64,000 nt of DNA, taken from assembly GCA_903813345.2 (NCBI GenBank), contig CAIIXF020000002.1, positions 22,024,455 through 22,088,454 on the forward strand. Direction: 5' to 3'. How positions within the stretch are numbered: position 1 is the first letter of the stretch; the number at the start of each line of letters is the position of its first letter. Below, one piece after another: positions 3,088 to 63,011 of the stretch. The DNA is from Owenia fusiformis (lineage: Eukaryota > Annelida > Polychaeta > Sabellida > Oweniidae). The notes under the pieces were generated by a model. That model was not told the DNA's origin. It worked only from the letters and a program-made list of their open reading frames with translations, and made no database searches. The translations under genes were made by a program, and so were the position numbers.

Positions 3088-3650
3088 TTATATCAGGATC
3101 TTCATCAGAAATTCTTTGATGATTTGCAAAGCTTTTTTAGCATGAGTTGTATGAGATGACATTGAGTTAAAACTCAGCCTAATGTACAATTCCCCATCAA
3201 TTTTGGTAGAGGACAAAAATAATCGACCATCTTGATTTATTTTTGTCAGTAGTTCATCAAGTTTTTTATTATCCTTAGACTTCAACTGGAATGCAACAGT
3301 TGAGAGTTCTGGCACAGGTCCAACTTCAATATCTGGAATTTTCTTCAATTCATCGTAACAGAACATTGTTAGCGCCATCTTTTCTCTAATGCAATCCTCA
3401 AAATGAGAAGTCCCTAATAATCGCAGGGTTAGCCATAGTGGAAGAGCACGGAATGGACGGCTCAACTCCAGGGAATATTCACTAGGGCTATAATGATCAT
3501 GCTGAGTGTCTGCGAGGCAGTTCCCTTGAAAATCTAGGGTCATTGCAGCATGCAGGTAGGCCCCGTGTTTCACCAATAATGCGCATGAACCCCAAGGAAG
3601 ATTCAGTCCTTTGTGAGGACTAATTATCAATGAATCAGAAAGCTCTATCC
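3088..3650 (-). CDS. Copy 1 exon 7: PLP lysine and C-terminal domain
   Basis: The acceptor CTATTTAG precedes GGATAGAG at 3650, and the frame continues from exon 6 as Lys-Gly-Ile-Glu-Leu. The exon holds SPHKG (Schiff-base Lys) and the whole small domain, and ends in a TAA stop at 3088. It differs from exon 7 of copy 2 at about 11 of 187 residues. Confidence 0.92.
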
Positions 3651-6600
3651 CTAAATAGGAAAGCATGTTTGAGTAAACATTGTGTCCCCAAAAAGCGTTA
3701 CACTTTTTGATAAGTATTTTCTCAGCAATTAATGAATCAAATATGTTAAAATTTCTATAAAGAAGCCTAAGGGTATCGCTAGAAAGTTGTACAAAATATG
3801 AAAGAGATCCTTAACCCCCCTATCACACCAAACTAGTTCTTACCCGTTCTTGCCAGTCCTACGAAAACGTCGTAAAACGGGCTCAATCTGGCTGTGGTCG
3901 GGAAATATGTCTGAAATAATTAGCTTCTTCGTTCTTAAACAGTCTTCAATACGTCCATCTCGTTCGCAGTTCGTTCAGGTCGCACCACGTCGGTGTGCAA
4001 CGTAGTAGAACGCGTCCCTTAGTCTAGAAGGTCAACATGACCTGATTACAGAACGGTATGGTCGCCATCGAATTTTGAATCGATTCAAAATTCTAAAATC
4101 ACATTCCCCACTGAGAACGTTCATAAAGTTCGTAAATAGACCTTAGAAAGTTGCAGCTACGTTCATTCCGTTCGCACACAGTTTAAAACCAGTTTTGAAG
4201 AACGCAGTGGCAACTTGTTTGGTGTGATAGCTATATTTTTGCTAACTCGTTCATAAGCAGTGTTAAATACGTTCTTAATCAGTTTAAACCCGTTTGCAAT
4301 TAGTTCTACCTCGTTCTCAACACGTCCTCAGACAGTTCAACTCGTTGTTAAAACGTCCCTAGTAGAATTGAAGTACGACGGTTCCGTTCGTAGTACGTCC
4401 AGCTCGTCGTTAGTACGTTGTCACTCGTTCTAATTGTAGAACGTGGCGACCACGAGAACATTTTGAGCATGTTCTAAGTTCTAGAGGACCTACCTGTTCG
4501 AGTACGTTCGATGAAGTTTGTAAATAGATCCCAAACGGTTCTTAGTATGTCCAGTCCGTTCGTACACAGTTGAAGCACGAACGGACTGGACGTACTTAGA
4601 ACCGTTTGGAGTCTATTTACAAACTTTAGCGAACCTGAGACTAACACGTACTCGAACGGGTAGGTCCTCTAGAGCTTAGAACATGCTCAAAATGTTCTCG
4701 TGGTCGTCACGTTCTACAATTAGAATGAGTGACAACGTACAGACGACGAGCTGGACGTACTACGAACGGAGCCGTCGTACTTCAATCCTACAAGGGACGT
4801 TTTAACAACGAGTTAAACTGTCTGAGGACGTTTTGAGAACGAGGTAGAACTAATTGCAAACGGGTTTAAACTGATTAAGAAAGTATTTAAGACTGCTTAT
4901 GAACGAGGTTGCAAAAATATAGCTATTACACCAAACAAGTTGCCACTGCATTCTTCAAAACTGGTTTTAAACTGTGTGCGAACGGAATGGACGTAGCTGC
5001 AACTTTCTAAGGTGTATTTACGAACTTCATGAACGTTCTCAGACGGGAAGGTGCAATGATTTTAGAATTTTGAATCGATTCCAAATTCGATGGCGACCAT
5101 ACCGTTCTGTAATCAGGTCATGATGGCCTTCTAGACTAAGTGACGCGTTATACGACGTTGCACACTGACGTGGTGCGACCTGAACGAACTGCGAATGAGA
5201 TGGACGTATTGAAGACTGTTTATGAACGAAGTAGCTAATTATTTTAGACATATTTCCCGACCACAGCCAGATTGAGCCCGTTTTACGACGTTTTCGTAGG
5301 ACTGGCAAGAACGGGTAAGAACTAGTTTGGTGTGATAGGGGGGTTACATATTATGTGAGAAATGACAAATTTGAAAATGCAAAATCCAGATTAATGGAAA
5401 GTAACTTATTCTAGTCTGAAAGAAGCTGTTTTTCCCAGCAGAGATGATTTTGTAATCACCATGTGAGCTCTTGTTATCGACATGGTTTAAAGCACATGTT
5501 ATCGCCAACCTGTCTTTGATGTCCGTCTGTTTGTCCGTCTGTCAAAACATTGGTATTGGTAGCTAATTCCAAATCTTCCACGACACTTGGAATGGGTTCA
5601 CTTTTAAAATGTGTCTACCTACATAAGGTCATCAATTGTTCCATAAATGGCGTCTCAAAAGATCACCTCATTTCAACATGGCGGCCATTTTTAATGTGGA
5701 AAATCGGGTTTTCAGCTCTATTTTGGTAATAACTCCACAAGTTTTTCACCAGATTGCTTGAAACTGTACAGGTATTTTTATTTAAGATCAAGATCGGCAA
5801 AACAAGTCACAAACACTCAAAATGGCCACGACTTTTACTCCGGAAAATCGTTTTTGGTCATAACTCCACAAATATCCCATCAATTTGGTTGAATAGAATA
5901 CAGGTACCTTTATTTCTGAACAATGTCCACAAGTTTCGGCAAAATATGTGGCAAAGATTCAAATTGGCCGCCACTTTTAATGCAGAAAATCAGGCTTTCA
6001 GTTCCTTTTTCACCATAACTCTGCATAGGTACCTTAATTTTAAGGTTAATAATGTCTACATGTTACAGCAAAATATGTTGCAAATATTCAAAGTGGTCGC
6101 CAATTTTATTGTAGAATTATTGTAGAAAAATCAGGTTTTCAGCTTTTTTCAGAACATCAATTCCATCAACTTCCATTTTACTTGAAATTGTACAGTTATC
6201 TTAATCTATAGGTCATCAAAGGTGTCTACAAGACAAACGCAGGCAAAACATGTTACAAATTGCAAAATGGCCGCCACTTTTATTGCAGAAAAATCATACA
6301 GCTAGCCAAGTACAGTACACGTGTACAAATCAAAAAACTGATACACAGAGACAAGCTGTTGGATTGACAGATTCTATCACCTTATAGCATGCACAAGCAC
6401 TATGAAGTCTCATTGCGCAGCTCTGATATTGGATTTTTACATGCATTTTTGAATTTGCCAATTCTAACAAAATATGTGACCAATCTATTCCATGTTTGTA
6501 CAACTTGTTAATGATACCATTAGGCTACTTTACAGATTTTTTCCTAAATTTTAGCATGGGCTTTCAAGAGTAATTAATTGCTGAGAAAATACCGTTAACC

Positions 6601-24762: not shown

Positions 24763-25325
24763 TTATATTAGGATCAACATCAGAAATTCTTTGATGATTT
24801 GCAAAGCCTTTTTAACATGAGTTGTATGAGTTGACATTGAGTTAAAACTCAGCCTAATGTACAATTCCCCATCAATTTTGGTAGAGGACAAATATAGTCG
24901 GCCATCTTGATTTATTTTTGTCAGTAGTTCATCAAGTTTTTTATTATCCTTAGACTTCAACTGAAATGCAACTATTGAAAGTTCTGGCACAGGTCCAACT
25001 TTAATATCTGGAATCTTCTTCAATTCATCGTAACAGAACATTGTTAGCGCCATCTTTTCTCTAATGCAATCCTCAAAATGAGAAGTCCCTAATAATCTCA
25101 GGGTTAACCATAGTGGAAGAGCACGGAATGGACGGCTCAACTCCAGGGAATATTCACTTGGGCTATAATGATCATGTTGAGTGTCTGCGAGGTAGTTCCC
25201 TTGAGTGTCTAGGGTCATGGCAGCATGTAGGTAGGCCCCGTGTTTCACCAATAATGCGCTGGAACCCCAGGGAAGATTCAGTCCCTTGTGAGGACTTATT
25301 ATCAATGAATCAGCCAGCTCAACAC
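24763..25325 (-). CDS. Copy 2 exon 7: PLP lysine and C-terminal domain
   Basis: The acceptor CATATTCAG precedes GTGTTGAG, continuing Lys-Gly-Val-Glu-Leu-Ala. It has SPHKG and the complete C-terminal domain with stop at 24763. Confidence 0.92.
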
Positions 25326-28300
25326 CTGAATATGAAAACGCATTTGATTAGTTCAATACATGACAAGGCATTAACATGCAAAGTGTTACCACCTTCCAGT
25401 TGTTACAGACGCCGAACTCCAAACACCAACACCAACCACTATCATGAAAAGTTGGAGACTATATTGACAAAAGTGGTGACATAAAAACAAAAAATAATAT
25501 ACAGTAAAACCTGTCTAAATGGAACACCTTTGGTACCTCTAAAAGGTGTTCCCGTTGGGAGGTGTCCCATAATAAGGCTCATTTAACATTATGTATTTTG
25601 GTCTTGGGACTCTGAAAAGTGTTCAACTAACAGAGGTTTTATCTTTAGAAGTATTCCACTCTACAAGTTTCACTGTAATAGCATGTTGGACTAAAATACA
25701 AAATAATAGGAAATCTCTTTGTAGTAATCAATTCTCTGCCAGATAATATTTTGAAGAAAATCTCAGATGTTGAGGAAAGTGCAGTAGTTTGTGGTATAAC
25801 TGTTACAGCAAAATAGTGCAAATTCTTCAAAATGGGAAAAATGAATGTTAAAATGGGTTTTTCTTGCAATAAGATTTTGGGATGTTAAGAACAAATAGGA
25901 GTACATTAACTACCTTTAGATTTCTGCCTAACCTCTTTAGAAAACATGTAAAATCCTCCATAGGCTGCATCAACGTGGAACCATGTGTCATGTCGCTTAG
26001 CAACAGTTGCTATAGCATCTAATGGATCTATAGCACCAATGTCTACATTACCCAAAGTAGCAATTATCATAAATGGATGAAGACCATTCTGAAAGAGAAA
26101 CATTCAAAAGGGATGGTGTCCGAATGTTGCTATAAGTTAAATGTTCATTTGCTGTCCATGAAATGTCACTTTTTTTTGAAAACCAAAGTTTTAAACTTGG
26201 GGAGTTTTTTATCTACCCCATCCCCTAATAGAATAAACCCTGTGTTATCTCTGGTAACTGTTGACAATTGCGCACTGTCGGTCTTCTCTTAAACAAATTA
26301 AAGTGGTAACTAAGAACAGAGTGGTAACTAAGTACAGACAGTGCCTCTTTAAATGGGACAGTAGAACCTGTATATCTGAACACCTGGCTAATCCGAACAC
26401 CTCCCAATCAGAACACTTTTTTTCGGTCCCATTTTTTCCTCCCATTTACTCCCATGTTAAAAAATACTTGAAATGTGAACACCTCTCAATTTGAACAGTG
26501 AACAGTCTTATTTGAAAAATTAACCTGTCTAATCTGAACACTTTTCATAAAATATCACATGTTTCATATAAATTTGCTCAAATATTTTTATGATATCAAA
26601 ACTTTGGAAAAAACTTGAATGGTCTTGATTATAATAGGGTTTTCCAGCATGACTAGATTCATTTGAATCGAATTTTCAAATTTTTGAAATGCCATAAAGC
26701 TACCGGTATGTGGTCAAATGAACTAGAGTATGTACTGAGAATGTGTTCACATTTCGTCAGAATCCGGAACCTCGCGAATGCAAAAACCTCGAAATGTGAA
26801 CACCTCCTAATTTGAACGTTTTAAGCCGGTCCAAATGGCGTTCGGATTAGACAGGTTTTACTGTACATGTATACTAGTAACCAGAGTTACCTGCATGTCT
26901 TCCTTGAGAGAGGTTTCAAGATGTTCAGGGTCCATTCGTGTTCCATAGTCATGCTTCACAGTTCTCACCTCACATTCTGCCATCCCGCAGATTTTTAGAG
27001 CCTTTAGGATGCAGCGATGGGTATGTTGAGTTATGTAAACCACCTGTCTAATTAAAGTGGCAACAAAGTACAAGAAGGTGATGAGTATGCTGAGTAATGT
27101 AAACCACCTGTCTAATTAAAGTGGCACCAAAGTACAAGAAGGTGATGAGTATGTTGAGTAAAAGTACAAGACAGCGATGAGTATGTTGAGTAATGTAAAC
27201 CACTTGTCTAATTAAAGTGGCAACAAAGTACAAGACAGCGATGAGTATGTTGAGTAATGTAAACCACCTGTCTAATTAAAGTGGCAACAAAGTACAAGAA
27301 GGTGATGAGTATGTTGAGTAATGTAAACCACCTGTCTAATTAAAGTGGCAACAAAGTACAAGAAGGTGATGAGTATGCTGAGTAATAGTAAACCACCTGT
27401 CTAATTAAAGTGGCAACAAAGTACAAAAAGGTGATGAGTATGTTGAGTAATGTAAACCACCTGTCTAATTAAAGTGGCAACAAAGTACAAAAAGGTGATG
27501 AGTATGTTTAGTAATGTAAACCACCTGTCTAATTAAAGTGGCAACAAAGTACAAGAAGGTGATGAGTATGTTGAGTAATGTAAACCACCTGTCTAATTAA
27601 AGTGGCAACAAAGTACAAAAAGGTGATGAGTATGTTGAGTAATGTAAACCACCTGTCTAATTAAAGTGGCAACAAAGTACAAGAAGGCGATGAGTATGTT
27701 GAGTAATGTAAACCACCTGTCTAATTAAAGTGGCAAAAATGTACAAGAAGCCAATGCGTATGTTGAGTAATGTAAACCACCTGTCTAATTAAAGTGGCAA
27801 CAAAGTACAAGAAGCCAATGCGTTTGTTGAGTAATGTAAACCACCTGTCTAATTAAAGTGGCAACAAAGTACAAGAAGGTGATGAGTATGCTGAGTAATA
27901 GTAAATTGTGAATTGCTGTATCCGCCACAGAATCCTGATTACACACATCTCATCTTTGCTCTTTATTACCTCTTTAGAAAAGATCCACAAAGCTATGATC
28001 ATATTAAAGCACCATACATGTGCCCCCATGTACGTACCTGTGATAGTCCCTGGCCTTTATATGTTTAGCCTGAACTGCAGTGCGTACTGCCATAATCGAA
28101 GCAATAGAAGCCCCAGACACTAGGGCCCCTTGGCTAGATGTGGGCATACCAACAAACTCTACCAACCATCTGACCATCTCCTCTTCTAGCTGAACTGCAC
28201 CTTCGGGTATAAGTGGTCATATACATTCAATAATGGTCAATCATTTGTTGCAAGAGGAGAAAATATGTGAGTTTAAAAGCAGATATGAGCTTAAAACTTC

Positions 28301-33339: not shown

Positions 33340-33675
33340 AGGTGTAAAAGGGTAGGAGGTCCTATCAAATGTTGGTCCTACTCTCTATTGATTTATATGG
33401 TGACCTAATCACAATTATTTTCCTTTTTATTCATACACAATCAGGGTCAGTAAGGGCCGTTAAGAAAGGGGACCATAATCCCTGGGGGACCATCATTTCT
33501 TTCACACCGGTGTAAAAGGGTAGGAGGTCCTATCAAATGTTGGTCCTACTCTCTTGATTTATATGGTGACCTAATCACAATTATTGTCCTTATTATTTAT
33601 ACACAGTCAGGGCCTGTAAGGTCCGTAAGGAAAGGGGACCATAATCCCTGGGTGACCATACTTTCTTTTACACCG
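33340..33675 (+). repeat. Direct duplication of a 168-bp unit plus a partial inverted copy
   Basis: GGTGTAAAAGGGTAGGAGGT starts each unit (about 33340 and 33508), and both units end in a TTTCTTTCACACC-like phrase. A third, inverted and partial version (CCCTGGGAAATCA...) follows at 33680-33760. No coding potential. Confidence 0.65.
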
Positions 33676-33884
33676 TTGTTGAGGGAGTTATGATTTCCCA
33701 GGGATAGCGGTCCCCTCCGTATTCTCTTTGCTGGTCCTGATTTGCTGATTGAGTATACACTATTATATGAGCCTATATAGGAAGGAGGATTTGTCACCTA
33801 ATCACGTAAGATGGCAATACGTTTTCACGTTGCATGTTACTGATCAGAATTACTTTCACGTTTCACATCCTTAATCATCAATAG

Positions 33885-34600: not shown

Positions 34601-34606
34601 AACAGC
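34601..34606. repeat. Left target-site duplication AACAGC
   Basis: Six bases immediately before the left terminus AGTAGATATA. The identical AACAGC follows the right terminus at 39371-39376. Six bases is the duplication size of Polinton/Maverick integration. Confidence 0.8.
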
Positions 34607-34634
34607 AGTAGATATAAAATGTCAGGTATCAGGC

Positions 34635-34653
34635 CGGGGTGGGCGGGGGTGGG
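34635..34653 (+). other. G-quadruplex motif near left terminus
   Basis: GGGGTGGGCGGGGGTGGG has four G-runs of three or more with one-base loops. The exact complement lies at 39324-39341 near the other terminus. Confidence 0.65.
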
Positions 34654-35554
34654 CAGATTTTCTGGATGTTTTAAGGTCACATGACCATGACATCATCCCT
34701 CAAGCCCCATCAAATTAATTTATCTCCTAATCCCCATCCAATTAATTTATCTCCTGCTCATTTGATGGGGCTTTCATCTTAAATGTGTAAAAATGTTAGA
34801 TAAAATGCGCATGACATCATTGTTATCTTAAATGGGTGAGAAATGTATTTCTTGTCTTAAATGGGTGAGAAATGTATTTCTTGGACTGAATGTCTTTAGT
34901 AAAGTACAAAATAAATCCCTTTAATATTATTTTAAATTTGGTCATTAACAGTGTTTACAATTCTACTTTCAATATTAACCCAACATTGAAAAGAATCAAT
35001 AATCCTATTGAGTTGGTCAAACAAATACTGTTCCCATAAAAGGAAAGAGAACTGGATTTTGAATTAAATATGTGTACAGATGAAAAGGTTTATTTATTTA
35101 AGTCCTATATTGAATTGACCATTTGATCTTACTACTCTACTTGATTTCAACAATAATGGTATTTTAATGTAATAATTGAATGTTGACATTTAATTGTGTC
35201 ATCACAATGTTAATCCTTCATATTCTAGAACATCTTTTGTTTACAGTGTTAATCGCCTTTTTCAAAAACAGATTATAGCGATGAGTCATTATTCTGGAAG
35301 GTTCCAGAAGTTTGACAGAAAAATCTATTGAATGTATGTTAAGAATATAAATAATCTTTCAACTTTCTAATCTGGAATGGTCAATAACAACAAGAACTAC
35401 ATTAATTCACGACATCAGTTTCTAAGAATATCACGACATCAGATGTTGATAAGAAGTTGATATTGATGCCACTTGACAATATATATTGAGTGAAATATTC
35501 AAATCTTTATCATTTCAATCCTTATACTTGATATATACACATCAACTAAAAACC

Positions 35555-35929
35555 ATGAAACTAGTACCATATGTAGACAACCCAGAACACTGGTTGAAAC
35601 TTATTAGAGCTGGTAGACAGAATAGATTGAAAGTATCTCAAACAGGAAGAGGGTGTATAGGCATAGATGACATTAAAGAAGATACTAAACCGGTATTAAT
35701 CATATCACCCATGACTGCAGTTGTCGACAGAGCAAAGGCACAATTGAAACGTCAACATGAAGATATGAAACATGAAGAGTATAGACCATCTAAAGAGAAA
35801 CAACAAAACTCTGTAAATATAAAGAAGAAACATCCATTTAAACAGAAAAAACAAAACACTTCGAATACAAGAAAGAAACGGACATTCTTATACAAACCAC
35901 CTGGTATCCCAGCAAGGATGGACGATTAA
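35555..35929 (+). CDS. Small basic protein of the palindromic element, left copy (124 aa)
   Basis: The first ATG in frame is at 35555 (MKLVPYVDNPEHW...). The protein has a short N-terminal region with NPEHWLKLIRAGRQ, a central VLIISPMTAVVDRAKAQLKR segment and a strongly basic Lys/Arg/Gln/Asn-rich C-terminus (KKHPFKQKKQ, RKKRTF). No membrane segment, signal peptide or enzyme motif is visible. The same protein, identical in every residue, is encoded head-on at 38048-38422. Purifying selection or very recent duplication would explain that. A nucleic-acid-binding or virion-core-like role in the Polinton context is a guess from composition only. Confidence 0.7.
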   Translation: MKLVPYVDNPEHWLKLIRAGRQNRLKVSQTGRGCIGIDDIKEDTKPVLIISPMTAVVDRAKAQLKRQHEDMKHEEYRPSKEKQQNSVNIKKKHPFKQKKQNTSNTRKKRTFLYKPPGIPARMDD

Positions 35930-36031
35930 AGTTATTTGTATATAATACTGAACGATATGAATAAAAATAAATAACTAAAGTTTCAAATGTTGTTGCTATT
36001 TACAGTCATTTACAAATGGTTTGAATATGTA

Positions 36032-36232
36032 TGAGCATTAGTTAGCATTACCTCATTAGCATCTGTTAGCATTATCATTAGCATATGTTAGCATCTGTAA
36101 GCATTATCATGAGTATCTGTTAGCATTACCATTAGCATATGTTAGCATCTGTTAGCATTACCATTAGCATATGTTAGCATCTGTTAGCATTACATCATTA
36201 GCATATGTTAGCATTATTTAGCATTAGTTTTA
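36032..36232 (+). repeat. TTAGCAT-type array, left arm
   Basis: Repeats of GTTAGCATCTG, CATTAGCATAT and TTAGCATTACC. Mirrored at 37746-37948. Confidence 0.8.
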
Positions 36233-36837
36233 CAAATGTTCACTGATGTTCACAAATGTTCACTGATGTTCACAAATGTTCAAAAATGTTCACTAGTATT
36301 GTTCACAAATGTTCACTGATGTTCACAAATGTTCACTAGTATTGTTCACAAATATTCACTGATGTTCACAAATGTTCAAAAATGTTCACTAGTATTGTTC
36401 ACAAATGTTCACTAGTATTGTTCACAAATGTTCACTGATGTTCACAAATGTTCACTAGTATTGTTCACAAATGTTCACTAGTATTGTTCACAAATGTTCA
36501 CTGATGTTCACTAGTATTGTTCACTGATGTTCACATATGTTCAAAAATGTTCACTAGTATTGTTCACTGATGTTCACAAATGTTCAAAAATGTTCACTAG
36601 TATTGTTCACAAATGTTCACTGATGTTCACAAATGTTCACTAGTATTGTTAACAAATGTTCACTGATGTTCACTAGTATTGTTCACAAATGTTCACTAGT
36701 ATTGTTCACAAATGTTCACTAGTATTGTTCACTGATGTTCACTGATGTTCACAAATGTTCACTAGTATTGTTCACAAATGTTCACTGATGTTCACAAATG
36801 TTCACAAATGTTCACTGATGTTCACAAATGTTCACAG
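36233..36837 (+). repeat. TGTTCAC-type satellite, left arm
   Basis: About fifty 11-14-base modules of three kinds: TGTTCACAAA, TGTTCACTGA and TGTTCACTAGTAT. They alternate irregularly. The matching array of the other arm is roughly 200 bases longer. Confidence 0.85.
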
Positions 36838-36936
36838 GGAATGAGGAGGAGGAGGAGGAGGGGATGAGGAGGAGGGAATGAGGAGGATGGAATGAGGAGG
36901 AGGATTAGGAGGGAATGAGGAGGAGGAGGAGAGGGA
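36838..36936 (+). repeat. Polypurine (GGA/GAGGA) centre of the palindrome
   Basis: About 99 bases of nearly pure G and A on the plus strand with GGAGGA and GGGAATGA motifs. It is the only part without a mirrored partner and would form the loop of the hairpin. Confidence 0.8.
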
Positions 36937-37745
36937 TTTGTGAACATCAGTGAACATTTGTGAACATTTGTGAACATCAGTGAACATTTGTGAACAATAC
37001 TAGTGAACATTTGTGAACATCAGTGAACATTTGTGAACATCAGTGAACAATACTAGTGAACATCAGTGAACATTTGTGAACAATACTAGTGAACATTTGT
37101 GAACATCAGTGAACATTTGTGAACAATACTAGTGAACATTTGTGAACATCAGTGAACATTTGTGAACAATACTAGTGAACATTTTTGAACATTTGTGAAC
37201 ATCAGTGAACATTTGTGAACAATACTAGTGAACATTTTTGAACATATGTGAACATCAGTGAATATCAGTGAACAATACTAGTGAACATCAGTGAACATTT
37301 GTGAACAATACTAGTGAACATTTGTGAACAATACTAGTGAACATTTGTGAACATCAGTGAACATTTGTGAACAATACTAGTGAACATTTGTGAACAATAC
37401 TAGTGAACATTTTTGAACATATGTGAACATCAGTGAATATCAGTGAACAATACTAGTGAACATCAGTGAACATTTGTGAACAATACTAGTGAACATTTGT
37501 GAACAATACTAGTGAACATTTGTGAACATCAGTGAACATTTGTGAACAATACTAGTGAACATTTGTGAACATTTGTGAACAATACTAGTGAACATTTTTG
37601 AACATTTGTGAACATCAGTGAATATTTGTGAACAATACTAGTGAACATTTGTGAACATCAGTGAACATTTGTGAACAATACTAGTGAACATTTTTGAACA
37701 TTTGTGAACATCAGTGAACATTTGTGAACATCAGTGAACATTTGT
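36937..37745 (-). repeat. TGTTCAC-type satellite, right arm
   Basis: Inverted counterpart of the left array. About 809 bases versus 605, with a different module order, so the arrays have changed length independently. Confidence 0.85.
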
Positions 37746-37948
37746 AAAACTAATGCTAAATAATGCTAACATATGCTAATGATGTAATGCTAACAGATGC
37801 TAACATATGCTAATGGTAATGCTAACAGATGCTAACATATGCTAATGGTAATGCTAACAGATACTCATGATAATGCTTACAGATGCTAACATATGCTAAT
37901 GATAATGCTAACAGATGCTAATGAGGTAATGCTAACTAATGCTCATAC
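37746..37948 (-). repeat. TTAGCAT-type array, right arm
   Basis: Inverted copy of 36032-36232 with the same module order. Confidence 0.8.
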
Positions 37949-38047
37949 ATATTCAAACCATTTGTAAATGACTGTAAATAGCAACAACATTTGAAACTTT
38001 AGTTATTTATTTTTATTCATATCGTTCAGTATTATATACAAATAACT

Positions 38048-38422
38048 TTAATCGTCCATCCTTGCTGGGATACCAGGTGGTTTGTATAAGAATGTCCGTT
38101 TCTTTCTTGTATTCGAAGTGTTTTGTTTTTTCTGTTTAAATGGATGTTTCTTCTTTATATTTACAGAGTTTTGTTGTTTCTCTTTAGATGGTCTATACTC
38201 TTCATGTTTCATATCTTCATGTTGACGTTTCAATTGTGCCTTTGCTCTGTCGACAACTGCAGTCATGGGTGATATGATTAATACCGGTTTAGTATCTTCT
38301 TTAATGTCATCTATGCCTATACACCCTCTTCCTGTTTGAGATACTTTCAATCTATTCTGTCTACCAGCTCTAATAAGTTTCAACCAGTGTTCTGGGTTGT
38401 CTACATATGGTACTAGTTTCAT
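38048..38422 (-). CDS. Small basic protein of the palindromic element, right copy (124 aa)
   Basis: Exact inverted counterpart of 35555-35929, with ATG at 38422 and stop at 38048. All 124 residues match the left copy. The two genes point towards the centre of the palindrome, so transcripts would run into the repeat arrays and could anneal to each other there. Confidence 0.7.
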   Translation of the reverse strand: MKLVPYVDNPEHWLKLIRAGRQNRLKVSQTGRGCIGIDDIKEDTKPVLIISPMTAVVDRAKAQLKRQHEDMKHEEYRPSKEKQQNSVNIKKKHPFKQKKQNTSNTRKKRTFLYKPPGIPARMDD

Positions 38423-39370
38423 GGTTTTTAGTTGATGTGTATATATCAAGTATAAGGATTGAAATGATAAAGATTTGAATATTTCACTCAATATATATTG
38501 TCAAGTGGCATCAATATCAACTTCTTATCAACATCTGATGTCGTGATATTCTTAGAAACTGATGTCGTGAATTAATGTAGTTCTTGTTGTTATTGACCAT
38601 TCCAGATTAGAAAGTTGAAAGATTATTTATATTCTTAACATACATTCAATAGATTTTTCTGTCAAACTTCTGGAACCTTCCAGAATAATGACTCATCGCT
38701 ATAATCTGTTTTTGAAAAAGGCGATTAACACTGTAAACAAAAGATGTTCTAGAATATGAAGGATTAACATTGTGATGACACAATTAAATGTCAACATTCA
38801 ATTATTACATTAAAAGACCATTATTGTTGAAATCAAGTAGAGTAGTAAGATCAAATGGTCAATTCAATATAGGACTTAAATAAATAAACCTTTTCATCTG
38901 TACACATATTTAATTCAAAATCCAGTTCTCTTTCCTTTTATGGGAACAGTATTTGTTTGACCAACTCAATAGGATTATTGATTCTTTTCAATGTTGGGTT
39001 AATATTGAAAGTAGAATTGTAAACACTGTTAATGACCAAATTTAAAATAATATTAAAGGGATTTATTTTGTACTTTACTAAAGACATTCAGTCCAAGAAA
39101 TACATTTCTCACCCATTTAAGACAAGAAATACATTTCTCACCCATTTAAGATAACAATGATGTCATGCGCATTTTATCTAACATTTTTACGCATTTAAGA
39201 TGAAAGCCCCATCAAATGAGCAGGAGATAAATTAATTGGATGGGGATTAGGAGATAAATTAATTTGATGGGGCTTGAGGGATGATGTCATGGTCATGTGA
39301 CCTTAAAACATCCAGAAAATCTGCCCACCCCCGCCCACCCCGGCCTGATACCTGACATTTTATATCTACT

Positions 39371-39376
39371 AACAGC
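39371..39376. repeat. Right target-site duplication AACAGC
   Basis: Matches 34601-34606 exactly and directly abuts the terminus TATATCTACT. Confidence 0.8.
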
Positions 39377-56210: not shown

Positions 56211-57770
56211 GAATGGTATAGGCCTGTGTAGCCTGCAGTTGAAACTTCAAGCAACTATGTTTGGAAATGATTTGATATTGAGACAAAACTGATTGAAAAT
56301 GAATTGAAATATCTTGAGAAACGTATGTGTAGTTTTGTCAATGCATCTTGGCAACACAACTTAGAGTTCATGCCGCTTAGAGTCCATGCAGTTCAGACTT
56401 GATGCAAATTTTAATACTGAATCAATGTGATGACATTTTGCAAGTGAATATTGTATAAAACTGACTTAATTTTAGAAGCTGGTACAGTTCAAGCCGATGC
56501 AGTTAGTTGCAGTTTGCAGCTGACAGCCGAGTTGATGAAGTATATTCATGACATATCAATGTGTGTTTTATCATTTTAAAATGGACATCGTTTCAGGTTG
56601 CTGTGATTTAATGTAACATTTAGGTTCAATTGCTGCTGACAATTAATAAAGATACAGATTGTGGAGCATACAGTACAGCAACAAAGAAGCAGTCGCATCA
56701 TCAGCCATTGCCAAAGGGCAATTCCTTCAAACAGTCCAGAAGTGCTTAGCAGTATAGATTGCCAAAGGGTAGTCACGTGAAACGGTGGTGTACAGCAGTA
56801 TAGATTACCAAAGGGCAATCACTTCAGTGAAATCTACAAACTGAACTCTACCAAATCGACTATCAGGTGTCATCTGCAAAGGCAGATGTATTCAGTGAAC
56901 AATAAAATTGCTGTAAATAAATAAATACTTTTGCTGCAAGCATGGTATCTTACCAATCCCGAGAGAATATACGACCCCCTCAAATAAAGTATTTTCCTGT
57001 GAACCTGTAGTGTTTTGATTATTCTGAGGAAATCTTCGACCCAAATTTCTTGTTTTCTTTGCTGTCCTACACACGCACAATATACACACTTGCACATCAG
57101 GATCTCTCCAACCTGATGAAATATTAATTCCTATGGAATTGCAGGCTCCATAATTTGTTTATACATATCACTCCTTGCTGCACCTGTCACAGTAAATTGA
57201 ATTTACCTCAACCGAGCATCGAATATCTAAAAATGAATGGCAGAATGCTTCAACCAAATGCCATTTGAAAATGCTGCATTGATGTTTTTAATGTATTGGT
57301 GCTAAACCATTTATGACCATCAATATATGAAAAATAGTTTACCTGTATAACGTCAAAGAACGTGATTCGGCTAAGACAACATATAATTTAAATGTAAGAG
57401 TAACAAGATCAGTGTGTCTTGCCCCCACATTGTGTTAATTGATCAAGACCTAGTACTGCTCGAATATATTTGACCATCCATTTGTTTGTAAAATAAACGT
57501 CCTTGTAAGAAAGCCTCTTATGTGAATGCATTCATATTACTCTATCGTCGTGAATATTTTGCGGCCATGTCATAAATAGGACATCGGCATACAATGTGTA
57601 TATAGTGCAAAGAACGTTTCGATTTTGTTACTTTGAATTTCCGTGTAATGATAAGATGGTAACAAAGTACGAGGTGGATTGTATGTCATATATTTTTGTA
57701 AAAACAACAACATTGTGTAAGCAGAGAATTTTGTGTTAGGTAGACAATTCTAAAAGTGTTTTATTGTATA

Positions 57771-60700
57771 ATGGAGCCTAAGGATATGCAGCAAAGCAAT
57801 AACGATTTTGAAGACCGGGAGAAACGGCAAATGGAATATAAGAAGGATGCCAAAACTTATCAACTAGCGCCATCTATTAGAAATTTTGATTCTTCGAATG
57901 AAACGGAGAACTACAAAAAGTGTACATACAAGGCTAAGCCTGATACATATAATGGTGAAATTTCATGGCCAGATTATGAGTTACAATTTGAAATATGCGC
58001 AGAGATAAATGGATGGAATATAGTTCAGAAAGCTAAAATATTAGCAATCCATTTAAAAGGTGCTGCTAGAGAGGTTTTGACTGATATACCGTTAGAAAGC
58101 AGATCCGATTATGAAACATTAACACAGAGGCTCAAAACACGATTCTCTCCAGAGCAGAAGGAGATAAACAAGTGTAATTTGAAGAATAAAAGAAGGGGAA
58201 CTTCAGAATCATTGACTGAATTGGGGCAATATCTGCGTAGGCAGACAGCTTTAGCGTATCCTGGATTTGATTTTTCTTTGAGAGAAGAGATTGCCTTTGA
58301 CCATTTCATGGTTGCAATTTCAAAACAGTCAGATATGAAAACTTATATCAGACTCTCGAAAGCAAAAACCCTAGATGAAGCTGTATTAGTTGGCCTAGAA
58401 TGGGAGTCGTACAATGTTCTAGATGGAGCAAACGCCTTCAAGGAAAATGAAATGGAAAAGCCAAATATGATTTTGACTGTAGAAAGGGAACAAACCTACG
58501 TAGAGAAAATACTACAATTAGTAAAAGAGCAACAAGAAGCCATCGATGATTTAAATAGAGAATTGGCAGATATCAGATCATTTAATGGTGGTATTGATCA
58601 AAGCGAGATGTTGAATACTTTACACGATGTCACGTGTTTTAATTGCCAGGGAAATCACACATCGAATATGTGTCCTGATGTTTTATACTGTACAAGATGT
58701 CACGATGAAAGGCACGTTAAAGAATTTTGTACAGCCGATGTGAGTGAAAACGCAAGAGAAAGAAGATCTCCTCATAGAGAATTCTCAAAATACAGCTACA
58801 ACCACAAACTTAGGAGAAGGAGAAGACATTTTGAGAAGTTTGGTGGAAACAGAAACTATTATAGGAACAGTGAATCTGGAAAAAGTAATGTGGACAGAAT
58901 ACCAGGATTGGAGCAAGATTGGCGAAATCAAAACCATTCCAATGACAATGGGACGGTGAATAACTCTGGGACAGAACGAAATGTGAATACTGAATTTACA
59001 CCAGAAATAAACAAGATGATGAAACAAGTAGAGAAATACAAAGATAGAGATATCATAAGCAGCATTCTCGAAGATGGCTTATTTGTAAAAGCAAAACTAG
59101 AATCAGGTACAGTTCAATTTCTTATTGACAGTGGATCCTGCATTTCAATAATCTCTATGGAAAAGTTCATGGAAATTGGAAAAGAGAAAGACATAATTGT
59201 GCCACCTTATAATGGATTCAAAAATGCAGACGGCAGCCAGTTACCTCTGGTTGGATACAGCAACGTTAGCCTTGGAATTGGAGATGGTGTTTTTCAACAT
59301 AAAATATGGATAGCGCACATAAGTGTAGACGCCATTTTGGGAATGGATTTTATGGTCCAGCACAAATGTATGTTAGACATGGGAAATGGACGCATGCGTA
59401 TTGGAGAAAATTATGTAGATTGTTGGACACGAGATTCACAGCCAGTGATAAAAGTACTTGTTAACAGCACGGTGAAAGTACCACCAATGAGCGAATTGAT
59501 TGTAAAAGGTCGGATTAATAGAATAAGTGGTCCATATAATGGAGGCAAGAGGCAGTTAGGTATTGTTGAACCATCACAAACATTTAATGACAAGCATGAT
59601 GTAATGATTGGCAGGTCGTTGGTCGACCTAAAAGATAAAAAGGAACAGTTGATACCATTGAGAGTATTGAATCCAACAGATCAACCTATTGTCATATACA
59701 GGAATACAAGAGCAGCCGAGGTAGAGTTAATTGACAAAATCGACCATGTTCTTGATCAGTATGGGAACAGGATAAATGCAGTATCCTCTTCAGATAGTAA
59801 GCCATCGCAGAAAATTCCAGAATATCTAAAAGATTTACACGAAAGAAGCAGCAAGCATCTTAATACTGACCAATCACAGTTGATAGGAGATTTACTGATT
59901 AGATACAAAGACATATTCGCAAAATCATCAGATGACTTAGGGAAAACATCAATTGTAGAGCACACTATAGATACAGGGAACCATGCACCTATAAGACAAC
60001 CTCCAAGAAGACAAGCATTAGCACAGCAGAAAGTAGTGACAGAGGAAGTGGAGAAGATGTTAAAGAATGGGATTATAGAACCATCAAATAGTCCTTGGTC
60101 ATCACCAGTGGTATTGGTAAAGAAAAAGGATGGAACCACACGCTTTTGCATAGACTATAGGAAACTCAACGAGGTTACGAGGAAAGATGCATATCCAATA
60201 CCTCGGTTGGACACTTGCCTCGATAGCTTAGCTGGGGCACAATGGTTTTGTTCCATGGATTTAGCAAGCGGTTATTGGCAGGTCAAGATGCACGAGGCTG
60301 ATAAAGACAAAACTAGTTTTGTTGTCAAAGATGGGTTATTCTCTTTCAATGTCTTACCATTCGGACTGACAAATGCTCCAAGCACTTTCCAAAGATTAAT
60401 GGAAACAGTACTCCGTGGATTGCAATGGAAAACGTCCCTATTGTACATCGACGACGTCCTTACATGGGGTACAACTTTTGAAAACACCTTGAATAATTTA
60501 CAGGAAGTATTTGAAAGAATCAGGAAGTCTGGAATGAAGTTGAAGCCCAAGAAATGTTCATTATTCCAGAAAGACTTGATCTTCTTAGGACACAAAGTGT
60601 CAAGGGATGGCATTGAAACTGACCCAGTTAAAGTAGAAAGGATCGTGAACTGGAAGACCCCACGTTGCCAGAAAGAGGTACGAGCTTTCAACGGATTTGT

Positions 60701-63011
60701 AGGATATTACAGGAAGTTCATCAAGAATTACTCCTCTATTGCAAGGCCTCTGAATCAACTTTGCGAAAAGACACAGAAATTTGTTTGGACAAAGGAGTGT
60801 GAAACAGCTTTCCAAACACTAAAGACAGCAATAGCATCAGCTCCAATATTGGCCTACCCAGAAGCTGATAGTCAATTTATATTAGACACAGATGCATCTG
60901 ACTTTGGTATCGGTGGTGTATTATCAATTGTTAAAGATGGAGTAGAGAAACCTGTCACATACTCAAGTCGAACACTCAATAAGTCGGAACGTAGATACTG
61001 CGTCACCAGAAAAGAATTGTTAGCCGTTGTTGTGTTTGTCAAGAAATTCAGACCATATCTTTATGGTAGGAAATTCATCATAAGGACTGACCATAAAGCT
61101 CTGAAATGGCTGTTTAAATTCAAAGAGCCAGATGGACAAATAGCAAGATGGCTAGAGATGCTAAGTTCCTATGACATGGAGATCCAGCATCGTGCAGGGA
61201 AATCCCACAGTAATGCAGATGGACTTTCAAGAATGGTATGTCCCCAGTGTGGCATGAAAGATGGTCAAATAAACGCCATACATAAGAATACTTCAGGGCC
61301 TCAAGAAAAACAGATATTGGAAGCATGGACATCAGAAGAAATTCGAAATATGCAACTGAATGATAAGGACATCAGTCCGATCTTGAAAGCATTTGAAAAG
61401 CAGAAACGACCACAATGGAATCAAATTAGCAAGGAGAGTCCAGCAACTAAACATCTGAATTCCCAATGGGATAGATTAGAAATAAAAGGCGGAATTTTGT
61501 ACAGGCGCTTTGAATCTGAAATTGGAGACAAGGTTACATTTCAAATGGTACTTCCCAAGAGACTCCATAGAGATGTATTGTTTCAGTTGCACAGTATGCC
61601 AACAGGAGGACACTTAGGAGTGATGAAAACTGTTGAAAAGATTAGAGAAAGATTTTACTGGCACAGTTTGCGCAGTGATGTCAGAAATTGGTGCCATCAA
61701 TGTGACCAATGTGCATCGCGGAAACCAAATCTAAAGAAAAAAAGAGCAAAGATGAAAGTTTATCAAGTCGGGGCTCCCATGGAGAGGATCGCGACAGACA
61801 TCCTCGGTCCTCTACCCACATCAGAAAAAGGTAACAAATACATCTTGATAGTGGCTGATTATTTTACCAAATGGACAGAGGCCTACGCCATGGCTTATCA
61901 AGAAACAGAAACAATAGCTGAGATAGTGAGCAAGGAATTCATTTGTAGATGGGGTTGTCCAATGGCCATGCACAGTGATCAAGGAAGAAATTATGAGTCC
62001 AAAGTTTTTCAAGAAGTATGTAAGGCTTTTGGAATTGATAAAACAAGAACCACACCACTTAGACCATGCTCTGATGGAATGGTTGAACGCTTTAATCGCA
62101 CACTAGAAAGTATGCTGAGCATGTTTGTAGAAAAGCACCAGCGTGATTGGGATGAGTACCTGCCATATTTGATGTTAGCGTATCGCACTTCAGTTCATGA
62201 AACATCACAGTTTACACCATGTGAAATGATGCTGGGAAGACAATTAAGCTTGCCTGTGGATATGGTATTTGGACCACCACCTGGAAATAATGACAGAGAA
62301 GAAACTGAATATGTAGAAAGAATGAAGAACAGGATGGAAAGTGCACATGCCTTTGCGAGAGAGAGTCTGAAAAAGAACAGTCTGAGACAAAAGAAGAATT
62401 ATGATACGAGAGCAGGAGATACCACAATGCATGAGGGAGATGCTGTTTGGCTGCATTGCCCAATGAGGAAGCCAGGCATCTCGCCAAAATTACAGAGACC
62501 ATATCAAGGTCCTTACATTATCACAAAACAAATAAGTGACATTACATTTAGAATCCAAAGATCAAAAAGGAGTAAGGCAACTGTAGTCCATATTGACAGG
62601 TTGAAACCATATACAGGTGAAGATAAGCCCACTTGGTACAAGAAAAGAGAATCAGATTTAGACCAGACAGTAGCGGAACCAGTAGAGAATCGAGCACATC
62701 AAGATAGGCAGAGAGCGACACAAGCAGAAGAACCTGTAGAAGAAGACAAACGTAATGAAACTGAGAATGATGGTTCAAATGAGGATGAGCCTGATACACA
62801 AACGAATCAAAACGAAGATGACCAGGGAGAATCAGAAGAATTCTATGAAGTAGAGAAGATTCTTGGTAAAAGAAAGAGAAAGGGTAAACTAGAGTATTTG
62901 TGCAAATGGAAAGGATGGGATTCTCGCCATAATACATTTGAGCCATTTACACATTTGAATGAATCTGCAAAGGATTATATTAGGTGTCACGTGATACCAG
63001 ATGTGAAATAA
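57771..63011 (+). CDS. Ty3/Gypsy Gag-Pol polyprotein with C-terminal chromodomain (1746 aa)
   Basis: A single frame without frameshift between gag and pol. From the ATG at 57771: Gag about 1-285; zinc knuckle region CFNCQGNHTSNMC plus CTRCHDERHVKEFC about 289-325; aspartic protease FLIDSGSC about 450; reverse transcriptase with RFCIDYRKLN (about 790), FGLTNAPSTFQRLM and YIDDVL (about 893); RNase H LDTDASDFGIGG about 1040; integrase with an HHCC zinc domain (about 1273-1313) and catalytic D (TDILGP, about 1344), D (HSDQGRNYES, about 1402) and E (GMVERFN, about 1438); a GPY/F-like module (PYQGPYIITK); a chromodomain about 1690-1740 (VEKILGKRKR, YLCKWKGW, NTFEP). Chromodomains can direct integration to histone-marked chromatin. 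The in-frame codon before this ATG at 57756 is GTG, so 57771 is preferred. Confidence 0.95.
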   Translation: MEPKDMQQSNNDFEDREKRQMEYKKDAKTYQLAPSIRNFDSSNETENYKKCTYKAKPDTYNGEISWPDYELQFEICAEINGWNIVQKAKILAIHLKGAAREVLTDIPLESRSDYETLTQRLKTRFSPEQKEINKCNLKNKRRGTSESLTELGQYLRRQTALAYPGFDFSLREEIAFDHFMVAISKQSDMKTYIRLSKAKTLDEAVLVGLEWESYNVLDGANAFKENEMEKPNMILTVEREQTYVEKILQLVKEQQEAIDDLNRELADIRSFNGGIDQSEMLNTLHDVTCFNCQGNHTSNMCPDVLYCTRCHDERHVKEFCTADVSENARERRSPHREFSKYSYNHKLRRRRRHFEKFGGNRNYYRNSESGKSNVDRIPGLEQDWRNQNHSNDNGTVNNSGTERNVNTEFTPEINKMMKQVEKYKDRDIISSILEDGLFVKAKLESGTVQFLIDSGSCISIISMEKFMEIGKEKDIIVPPYNGFKNADGSQLPLVGYSNVSLGIGDGVFQHKIWIAHISVDAILGMDFMVQHKCMLDMGNGRMRIGENYVDCWTRDSQPVIKVLVNSTVKVPPMSELIVKGRINRISGPYNGGKRQLGIVEPSQTFNDKHDVMIGRSLVDLKDKKEQLIPLRVLNPTDQPIVIYRNTRAAEVELIDKIDHVLDQYGNRINAVSSSDSKPSQKIPEYLKDLHERSSKHLNTDQSQLIGDLLIRYKDIFAKSSDDLGKTSIVEHTIDTGNHAPIRQPPRRQALAQQKVVTEEVEKMLKNGIIEPSNSPWSSPVVLVKKKDGTTRFCIDYRKLNEVTRKDAYPIPRLDTCLDSLAGAQWFCSMDLASGYWQVKMHEADKDKTSFVVKDGLFSFNVLPFGLTNAPSTFQRLMETVLRGLQWKTSLLYIDDVLTWGTTFENTLNNLQEVFERIRKSGMKLKPKKCSLFQKDLIFLGHKVSRDGIETDPVKVERIVNWKTPRCQKEVRAFNGFVGYYRKFIKNYSSIARPLNQLCEKTQKFVWTKECETAFQTLKTAIASAPILAYPEADSQFILDTDASDFGIGGVLSIVKDGVEKPVTYSSRTLNKSERRYCVTRKELLAVVVFVKKFRPYLYGRKFIIRTDHKALKWLFKFKEPDGQIARWLEMLSSYDMEIQHRAGKSHSNADGLSRMVCPQCGMKDGQINAIHKNTSGPQEKQILEAWTSEEIRNMQLNDKDISPILKAFEKQKRPQWNQISKESPATKHLNSQWDRLEIKGGILYRRFESEIGDKVTFQMVLPKRLHRDVLFQLHSMPTGGHLGVMKTVEKIRERFYWHSLRSDVRNWCHQCDQCASRKPNLKKKRAKMKVYQVGAPMERIATDILGPLPTSEKGNKYILIVADYFTKWTEAYAMAYQETETIAEIVSKEFICRWGCPMAMHSDQGRNYESKVFQEVCKAFGIDKTRTTPLRPCSDGMVERFNRTLESMLSMFVEKHQRDWDEYLPYLMLAYRTSVHETSQFTPCEMMLGRQLSLPVDMVFGPPPGNNDREETEYVERMKNRMESAHAFARESLKKNSLRQKKNYDTRAGDTTMHEGDAVWLHCPMRKPGISPKLQRPYQGPYIITKQISDITFRIQRSKRSKATVVHIDRLKPYTGEDKPTWYKKRESDLDQTVAEPVENRAHQDRQRATQAEEPVEEDKRNETENDGSNEDEPDTQTNQNEDDQGESEEFYEVEKILGKRKRKGKLEYLCKWKGWDSRHNTFEPFTHLNESAKDYIRCHVIPDVK

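What the first reader, a model, noticed from the sequence alone, without database searches (positions are those of the whole stretch)
34607..39370. A 4.76-kb palindromic Polinton-like element with one gene encoded head-on in both arms
Seen: AGTAGATATA termini, a perfect 6-bp AACAGC duplication, near-identical arms over more than 2.2 kb each, and the same 124-aa gene in both arms. Known: Polintons have 5'-AG ends, long TIRs and 6-bp duplications, and replicate with a protein-primed polymerase. Inferred: this is a snap-back or hairpin replication product of a Polinton end, comparable to palindromic defective viral genomes, that was then integrated by an integrase supplied in trans. I know of no described element with this layout.
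Basis: partly seen in the sequence, partly recalled or inferred. Interest (0 to 1): 0.88.

Follow-up and report, generated by a model that had tools for sequence, protein, structure and literature searches.

The report
Palindromic satellites of an animal Polinton
This stretch is a mobile DNA element whose second half mirrors its first, one of a small family in this animal genome that seems to depend on a virus-like transposon (a Polinton) to copy and insert itself, and it gives a rare handle on how such elements copy their DNA.

Summary
Window 34607-39370 is a 4,764-bp AG...CT element with a perfect AACAGC duplication, two near-identical arms and one 124-aa gene in each arm. It is not unique. 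In the host genome (498 Mb) I found 32 complete elements with related ends, 32 of 32 with a perfect, different 6-bp duplication: one 14.5-kb Polinton (PolB, ATPase, integrase, adenain), seven ~8-kb copies (no PolB where read), nine ~4-kb two-gene copies (packaging ATPase plus the 124-aa protein), one asymmetric copy and fourteen palindromes. All fourteen share a related purine-tract centre; its exact fold-back junction was found only in palindromes (10 of 14). Arms differ between elements (class-2-like, class-3-like, chimeric) yet are 99.6-100% identical within each. So this is not a one-off snap-back product but an inherited form whose two arms change together. Best reading: a non-autonomous Polinton satellite that passes through a hairpin (half-length) form in protein-primed replication and is integrated in trans. 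Trans-mobilisation is well supported. The hairpin step is inferred; gene conversion between arms is its main rival. Foldback transposons, hairpin linear plasmids and snap-back defective genomes are precedents in kind.

The parts
34601..34606 (.). target-site duplication, left (AACAGC)
34607..34634 (+). 28-bp terminal cassette, type a (AGTAGATATAAAATGTCAGG...), 5'-AG end
34607..36835 (+). left arm
34760..35263 (+). subterminal block (element 154-657), matched in 14 of 14 palindromes, 9 of 9 class-2 and 7 of 7 class-3 elements; candidate cis-acting region (function inferred)
35555..35929 (+). 124-aa basic protein gene, left copy; homologue in the ~8-kb element L030 (126 aa)
36034..36226 (+). TTAGCAT-type tandem repeats, left
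36232..36836 (+). 10-bp TGTTCACAAA-type tandem array, left
36836..36939 (.). purine-tract centre (GGGAATGAGGAGG...GGGATTT) without a mirror image; related tract in all 14 palindromes; proposed hairpin loop
36940..37741 (-). tandem array, right (inverted)
37751..37943 (-). TTAGCAT-type tandem repeats, right (inverted)
38048..38422 (-). 124-aa protein gene, right copy (identical protein)
36940..39370 (-). right arm
39371..39376 (.). target-site duplication, right (AACAGC)

Best explanation
The element is a non-autonomous, palindromic satellite of a Polinton family. It supplies the Polinton ends and a small basic protein; PolB (with its terminal-protein domain), integrase and, if packaged, capsid and ATPase come in trans from gene-bearing relatives. 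The palindrome is inherited as such. I propose that it passes through a half-length hairpin: a strand that stops or breaks beyond the purine tract folds back through the 10-bp arrays and copies its own 5' arm, so both arms (including any newly acquired segment) become identical while the purine tract stays as the loop. Displacement synthesis from the terminal protein then opens the hairpin to a full palindrome, which the integrase inserts at 6-bp staggered cuts. Shown: family, ends, duplications, shared centre and junction, symmetric arms, conserved gene, gene-bearing relative. Inferred: trans-mobilisation (from absent genes plus perfect duplications), hairpin intermediate, loop role, any packaging.
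For: 32 of 32 complete elements found have perfect, mutually different 6-bp duplications (30; L011 and L056). The 14.5-kb copy carries a 1,287-aa frame whose named homologues include DNA-directed DNA polymerases and an adintovirus PolB and, in separately read pieces, ATPase, integrase and adenain ORFs. L030 (~8 kb) has Pox_A32, rve + chromodomain and Peptidase_C5 domains. 14 of 14 palindromes share a related purine centre with the same or closely similar junctions. The junction 16-mer has 15 genome matches, all inside 10 of the 14 palindromes (control 2). The tract was not found in the 8 class-2 elements tested, L030 and L032 or the left 2.3-2.6 kb of 7 of 7 class-3 elements. Within-element arm identity over the ~500-bp subterminal block is 99.6-100% in 14 of 14; the nearest other element is at 96.3-99.2% for 10 of 14. 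Arms of different origin sit on the same centre type: class-2-like (W, L009, L012, L018), class-3-like (L033), class-3 plus class-2 chimera (L010, L020, L021), each time symmetric. L009 has two arms of 2,565 bp at 100% with 109 bp between. The 124-aa frame is open in 14 of 14 arms of the 7 gene-bearing palindromes; mean dN/dS is 0.19 among palindromes.
Against: No extrachromosomal form, transcript or protein was seen; replication is inferred from integrated copies. Chromosomal gene conversion between arms could also keep arms identical. In 4 of 14 palindromes (L010, L020, L021, L033) another element is as close over the subterminal block (99.8-100%) as the partner arm, so that test says nothing for them. 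The arrays on the two sides differ in length in W and several others, which fold-back copying must explain by register shifts. L056 carries the centre in a non-palindromic element (arm - array - purine tract - 3' part of a class-2 ATPase - right end, duplication TGTGGG), so the centre is not strictly tied to symmetry. In L025 (type b/type a) and L011 (type a/type c) the terminal cassettes differ between the two ends, so the very ends need not be copied together. The Pfam PolB model did not match the PolB frame; its identity rests on homologues. Pairwise dN/dS values are not independent.
Confidence: 0.6

Rival explanations
1. Inherited palindromic Polinton derivatives whose arms are kept identical by ordinary arm-to-arm gene conversion in the chromosome, as in sex-chromosome palindromes (recalled), without any hairpin replication form.
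For: Arms are 99.6-100% identical in 14 of 14 while most elements differ; long inverted repeats are prone to conversion (general knowledge).
Against: L-R substitutions in the unique arm parts total 23 over 14 palindromes, 14 of them in L025, of which 13 lie in its terminal 28 bp: little residue of partly converted tracts. Conversion would also have to make every acquired segment symmetric after insertion.
Confidence: 0.24
2. Each palindrome arose separately by one snap-back event on a Polinton end and was inserted at once.
For: Arms resemble ends of non-palindromic relatives (L010 arm against L030 left end 99.2%); L056 shows the centre in a non-palindromic element.
Against: A related centre and fold-back junction occur in all 14 palindromes, and the exact junction 16-mer only in palindromes; the tract was not found in the 8 class-2 elements tested, the 7 class-3 left ends or L032.
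Confidence: 0.1
3. A foldback-type cut-and-paste transposon whose inverted repeats grew by recruiting internal sequence and tandem repeats, as described for Galileo.
For: Long inverted repeats with tandem arrays and a small unshared middle; Galileo shows a two-TIR copy with tandem repeats and TIR extension (PMC4168063, passages).
Against: 6-bp duplications and Polinton ends shared with PolB/rve-bearing relatives, not a P-type transposase with 7-8-bp duplications. The growth mechanism itself could still be similar.
Confidence: 0.05
4. Assembly artefact (inverted duplication).
For: Palindromes are a known assembly hazard; no reads were available here.
Against: 14 palindromes, each with its own 6-bp duplication, several with a few arm differences.
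Confidence: 0.01

Closest known systems
Polinton/Maverick elements (adintovirus-type PolB)
   Same: 5'-AG ends, inverted repeats, 6-bp duplications; same-ended relatives carry PolB, rve integrase, A32-type ATPase, adenain
   Different: This element has only one small gene, twice, and is palindromic except for a 104-bp centre and array-length differences
Foldback-like transposons (Galileo, Tetris, FB)
   Same: Nearly all of the element is inverted repeat, with tandem arrays inside
   Different: Other transposase class and duplication length (Galileo: P superfamily, 7-8 bp); the passages of PMC4168063 that I saw describe TIR extension in individual copies, not one shared centre with symmetric arms. 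Tetris seen only in a listing, FB recalled
Hairpin plasmid derived from yeast linear plasmids (Kikuchi et al. 1985; title seen in a reference list and cited in a review passage; details recalled)
   Same: A protein-primed linear replicon giving a perfect hairpin and its palindromic form (recalled)
   Different: Cytoplasmic plasmid, not integrated; full text was not held
Snap-back defective interfering genomes (PMC6696905, passages); Ad12 symmetric recombinants and adenovirus left-end duplications (recalled only)
   Same: One genome end duplicated in inverted form and propagated in trans
   Different: Those are defective genomes of virus stocks; here the form is integrated, carries a conserved gene and has diversified

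Membership tests
Polinton/Maverick | 5'-AG...CT-3' ends with inverted repeats | tested here: met
Polinton/Maverick | 6-bp target-site duplication | tested here: met
   32 of 32 complete elements
Polinton/Maverick | protein-primed PolB in the element | tested here: not met
   no ATG-started ORF of 70 aa or more in the window element apart from the two 124-aa copies; a PolB homologue is present in the same-ended 14.5-kb relative, though Pfam DNA_pol_B_2 does not match it
Polinton/Maverick | rve integrase, packaging ATPase, adenain in the element | tested here: not met
   domains found in L030, closely similar ORFs in pieces of the 14.5-kb relative
Polinton/Maverick | jelly-roll capsid genes | tested here: inconclusive
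   the 448-aa and 139-aa ORFs of L030 have no Pfam hit; major capsid and penton identities are recalled resemblance only
Non-autonomous Polinton derivative (satellite) | same ends and subterminal sequence as a gene-bearing copy in the genome | tested here: inconclusive
   terminal 20-mer shared with the 14.5-kb copy; beyond it W shares little with that copy's left 3.9 kb but matches the ~8-kb class over 154-657 at about 83% and class-2 elements over long stretches
Foldback (FB/Galileo) elements | very long inverted repeats with internal tandem arrays | tested here: met
Foldback (FB/Galileo) elements | P-type transposase, 7-8-bp duplication | tested here: not met
   6-bp duplication, rve-bearing relatives
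Snap-back/hairpin replicons | extrachromosomal hairpin or palindromic DNA | not testable with these tools
   assembly only

The most novel reading that the evidence does not exclude
A self-perpetuating palindromic lineage of Polinton satellites in which the heritable unit is one arm plus a purine loop: the half-length hairpin is the replicating genome, it can swap its whole arm with other Polinton derivatives, and protein-primed synthesis rewrites both arms at every cycle before integration in trans. In half of its members it carries one homologue of a small Polinton gene, as a packaging or interference parasite might.
Probability: 0.4. Interest if true: 0.8.

Novelty: new variant of a known kind. 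Interest (0 to 1): 0.64.

Why it matters
Polintons are thought to replicate by protein priming as linear DNA, mostly by analogy and from PolB domain structure. A family of integrated palindromes with a shared fold-back junction and symmetric, exchangeable arms would be a record of that replication step in an animal and makes it testable: hairpin forms can be looked for directly. It also shows a layered parasite system in one genome (14.5-kb copy with PolB, ~8-kb copies without it where read, two-gene ATPase satellites, one-gene or gene-less palindromes), with palindromes the most numerous class among those found.

Tried and rejected
Assembly artefact: rejected on the duplications. A multipartite Polinton with PolB on a separate same-ended segment: rejected, since the 14.5-kb same-ended copy holds a PolB homologue together with ATPase, integrase and adenain ORFs. 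The PolB locus L029 has no AGTAGATA motif in the 7 kb read and was set aside. The 124-aa protein found only the window's own record among 5.8 billion proteins at E 0.1 (9 candidates), no Pfam family above its cut-off (MBR1, 17.2 bits against 25) and no PHROG. PDB by sequence gave only weak P-loop, zinc-finger and similar matches for the ATPase (best E 0.05). A viral-contig scan with the ATPase alignment confirmed no relative (28 pattern matches, none by tblastn). Paper searches (listings, some capped): Polinton/inverted repeat/palindrome (24 of 24 listed), segmented genome/adintovirus (27, 20 of 25), Maverick/non-autonomous/mollusc (28, 11 of 11), adenovirus symmetric recombinant (65, 12 of 2,416), six phrases such as 'non-autonomous Polinton' (66, 0 papers), pGKL1/hairpin (72, 12 of 5,385), foldback/Polinton (73, 8 of 8), Owenia/Polinton (74, 12 of 207), hairpin plasmid (109, 9 of 9), adenovirus snapback (110, 1). 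No description of a palindromic Polinton appeared in these titles and abstract openings; the library covers only openly licensed PMC papers. Structure prediction was not used.

Rows dropped: the two stray pattern matches (C8:26892751, C9:32905808) were not counted; L017 (123 aa) was left out of the dN/dS set; five of 14 palindrome centres were given to the shuffle test. Elements whose two ends are both of the third terminal type (as in L056) would be missed by the pattern, so 32 is a lower bound.
Full report
WHAT IS THERE. Window 34607-39370 is a 4,764-bp element with 5'-AG...CT-3' ends and a perfect AACAGC duplication. Its arms are mirror images. In the unique part two substitutions separate them; the other differences are in the tandem arrays next to the centre. 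Each arm carries the same 124-aa ORF pointing inward. Apart from array-length differences, the part without a mirror image is a 104-bp purine tract, 36836-36939.

THE FAMILY. The host genome is held (498 Mb, 525 contigs). The window has an ankyrin/SOCS-box ORF, as in animals; my guess Owenia fusiformis rests on recall of chromosome number and genome size, not on a call. A pattern for the terminal 20 bp gave 63 matches: 30 +/- pairs, one unpaired end (L011) and two strays, against 1 for the reversed control. All 30 pairs enclose an element with a perfect 6-bp duplication, all 30 different. L011 and L056 are complete too, with duplications GTCTAA and TGTGGG and a third kind of terminal cassette at one or both ends: 32 of 32. 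They fall into these classes. (i) One 14,521-bp copy, C3:31497900-31512420, read in separate pieces: a PolB homologue, ATPase and integrase ORFs, adenain ORF. (ii) Seven copies of 7.96-8.54 kb. The one read whole in two pieces, L030/L031, has A32-type ATPase, rve integrase with chromodomain, adenain, a homologue of the 124-aa protein and further ORFs but no PolB ORF. The other six were read at their ends and left 2.3-2.6 kb only; their ATPase starts 1.8-2.4 kb from the left end, and 6.1-6.4 kb follow, as in L030, so a PolB to the left does not fit; the PolB search, which scores only the best candidates, listed none of them. (iii) Nine copies of 3.9-4.5 kb with two genes, the 124-aa protein and a 516-aa C2H2 + A32-type ATPase. 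(iv) Fourteen palindromes of 3.8-7.2 kb, seven with the 124-aa gene in both arms and seven in which it was not found. (v) L056, asymmetric, below.

ONE CENTRE. In all 14 palindromes the two halves are separated by a related purine tract with similar junctions, GTTCACAGGGAATGAGG on one side (L010 one base different, L024 unlike) and GGGGGATTTGTGAACA on the other (W, L012, L018 and L033 variant); L033 and L034 carry the tract more than once. The 16-mer GGGGGATTTGTGAACA occurs 15 times in the genome, all within 10 of the 14 palindromes; the reversed control gave 2. A centre 22-mer has 10 exact matches, 9 in eight palindromes and one in L056; with up to 2 mismatches there are 26, five of them at three places outside these elements. 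The tract was not found in the 8 class-2 elements tested, L030 and L032 or the left 2.3-2.6 kb of all 7 class-3 elements. So the fold-back junction most likely arose once and was inherited.

WHERE THE CENTRE MAY COME FROM. Those three outside places were read in 0.9-1.0-kb pieces. Purine/pyrimidine tracts lie upstream of an ATPase gene start in two of them (L057, L058) and between the end of a PolB (94% to that of the 14.5-kb copy, one stop) and an internal part of an ATPase gene in the third (L060). Local alignment scores of five palindrome centres to these three tracts and to that of L056 exceeded the maximum of 200 dinucleotide shuffles in 20 of 20 comparisons (closest case 58 against 52). 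The tract in L056 has the opposite orientation to its ATPase from that in L057, L058 and L060, so the route is open.

AN ASYMMETRIC RELATIVE. L056/L059 (from C6:19882953, about 3.3 kb) reads arm - array - purine tract - GGGGGATTT and then, in place of the inverted array, the 3' part of a class-2 ATPase (97.4% to L015 over 978 bp) and a right end; duplication TGTGGG. It may be like the progenitor of the palindromes or a palindrome x class-2 recombinant; I cannot tell which.

ARMS CHANGE TOGETHER. Over a shared ~500-bp subterminal block the two arms of each palindrome are 99.6-100% identical in 14 of 14, while the nearest other element is at 96.3-99.2% in 10 of 14; in the other four (L010, L020, L021, L033) the nearest other elements are at 99.8-100%, so the block is uninformative there. 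Arms come in kinds: like class 2 (W, L009, L012, L018), like class 3 (L025, L026, L027, L033, L034), class 3 followed by the class-2 gene (L010, L020, L021), the left end of the 14.5-kb copy followed by a class-3 end (L028; 93.3% over the first 1,066 bp), and L024, which is close to L026 (95.1% over 1.17 kb). Whatever the kind, both arms have it. Substitutions between the arms' unique parts total 23 across all 14, with 4 indel runs; 14 of the 23 are in L025, 13 of these within its terminal 28 bp, where the two ends are of different type. L009 is two arms of 2,565 bp at 100% with 109 bp between.

MECHANISM. Shown: shared ends, duplications, junction and symmetry. From the literature (PMC11071308, passages): Polinton PolBs carry a terminal-protein domain for protein-primed replication. 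Inferred: a strand whose 3' end lies in the far array can anneal to its own near array (10-bp repeats make this easy), copy the 5' arm to the end, and so give a hairpin of one arm with the purine tract as loop. Replication through the loop yields a palindrome with two identical arms and arrays that may differ in register, which is what is seen. Any exchange at the hairpin stage alters both future arms at once. Integration in trans follows from perfect 6-bp duplications in elements that lack an integrase ORF. I put this hairpin step at about 0.55-0.6 and trans-mobilisation by the Polinton enzymes at about 0.9.

THE GENE. The 124-aa protein is kept open in 14 of 14 arms of gene-bearing palindromes and in 9 of 9 class-2 copies (one is 123 aa). 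Mean dN/dS is 0.19 among palindromes, 0.075 among class 2 and 0.185 between them; variable sites by codon position are 6/3/13 in 15 sequences, one per element, L017 left out (pairs are not independent). It resembles an ORF that lies before a 448-aa ORF in L030, a place where virion genes lie in Polintons (recalled). Its role is unknown; a small basic DNA-binding or virion protein is my guess.

CIS REGION. A subterminal block (element 154-657, or most of it) is matched at the left end of 7 of 7 class-3 and 9 of 9 class-2 elements and at both ends of 14 of 14 palindromes, but was not matched in the 14.5-kb copy apart from 154-238 (that copy was not read whole). A packaging or replication signal selected in derivatives, as in defective genomes, is possible and untested.

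COMPARISON. Works like: foldback elements in layout (Galileo passages), hairpin linear plasmids and snap-back defective genomes in proposed mechanism (passages; Kikuchi 1985 itself not read). Membership: a Polinton derivative by ends and duplications, not an autonomous Polinton. In the ten listings searched I saw no palindromic Polinton described; these cover only openly licensed PMC papers and several were capped.

Noticed in passing
C6, from 19882953, about 3.3 kb (L056, L059): Asymmetric complete element (duplication TGTGGG) with the palindrome centre joined to the 3' part of the two-gene element's ATPase; possible progenitor or recombinant.
   Followed up: partly
L025 (C12:31467272-31471943) and L011:2180-6497: Elements with two different terminal cassettes (b/a and a/c) and perfect duplications (GATATC, GTCTAA); in the other 21 elements listed the two terminal 28-mers are the same.
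   Followed up: partly
L011, L013-L017, L019, L022, L023: Two-gene ~4-kb elements carrying an A32-type packaging ATPase plus the 124-aa protein: satellite-like Polinton derivatives in their own right.
   Followed up: partly
window 34760-35263 and relatives: Subterminal block matched in 30 of 30 class-2, class-3 and palindromic elements but, apart from its first 85 bp, not in the 14.5-kb copy as far as searched; candidate cis-acting signal.
   Followed up: partly
L034 (C9:23056677-23060927): Palindrome with several purine-tract/array junctions in both orientations (5 matches of the junction 16-mer).
   Followed up: no
host genome, PolB search: 84 PolB matches (36 of 1,284 candidates scored): four loci at 94% or more to the 14.5-kb copy's PolB and many others at lower identity, so several Polinton lineages.
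   Followed up: no
window 57756-63011: 1,751-aa open frame that reads like an LTR-retrotransposon gag-pol with a chromodomain-like C-terminus (by eye, not searched).
   Followed up: no
window 27012-27905: 64-bp tandem repeat array, about 11.6 copies in the main part.
   Followed up: no
window 3088-3666 and 24763-25305: Two closely similar open frames of 192 and 180 aa (a duplicated gene, decarboxylase-like by eye, not searched).
   Followed up: no
window 33341-33679: Two tandem 166-bp copies about 0.9 kb outside the element's left end.
   Followed up: no
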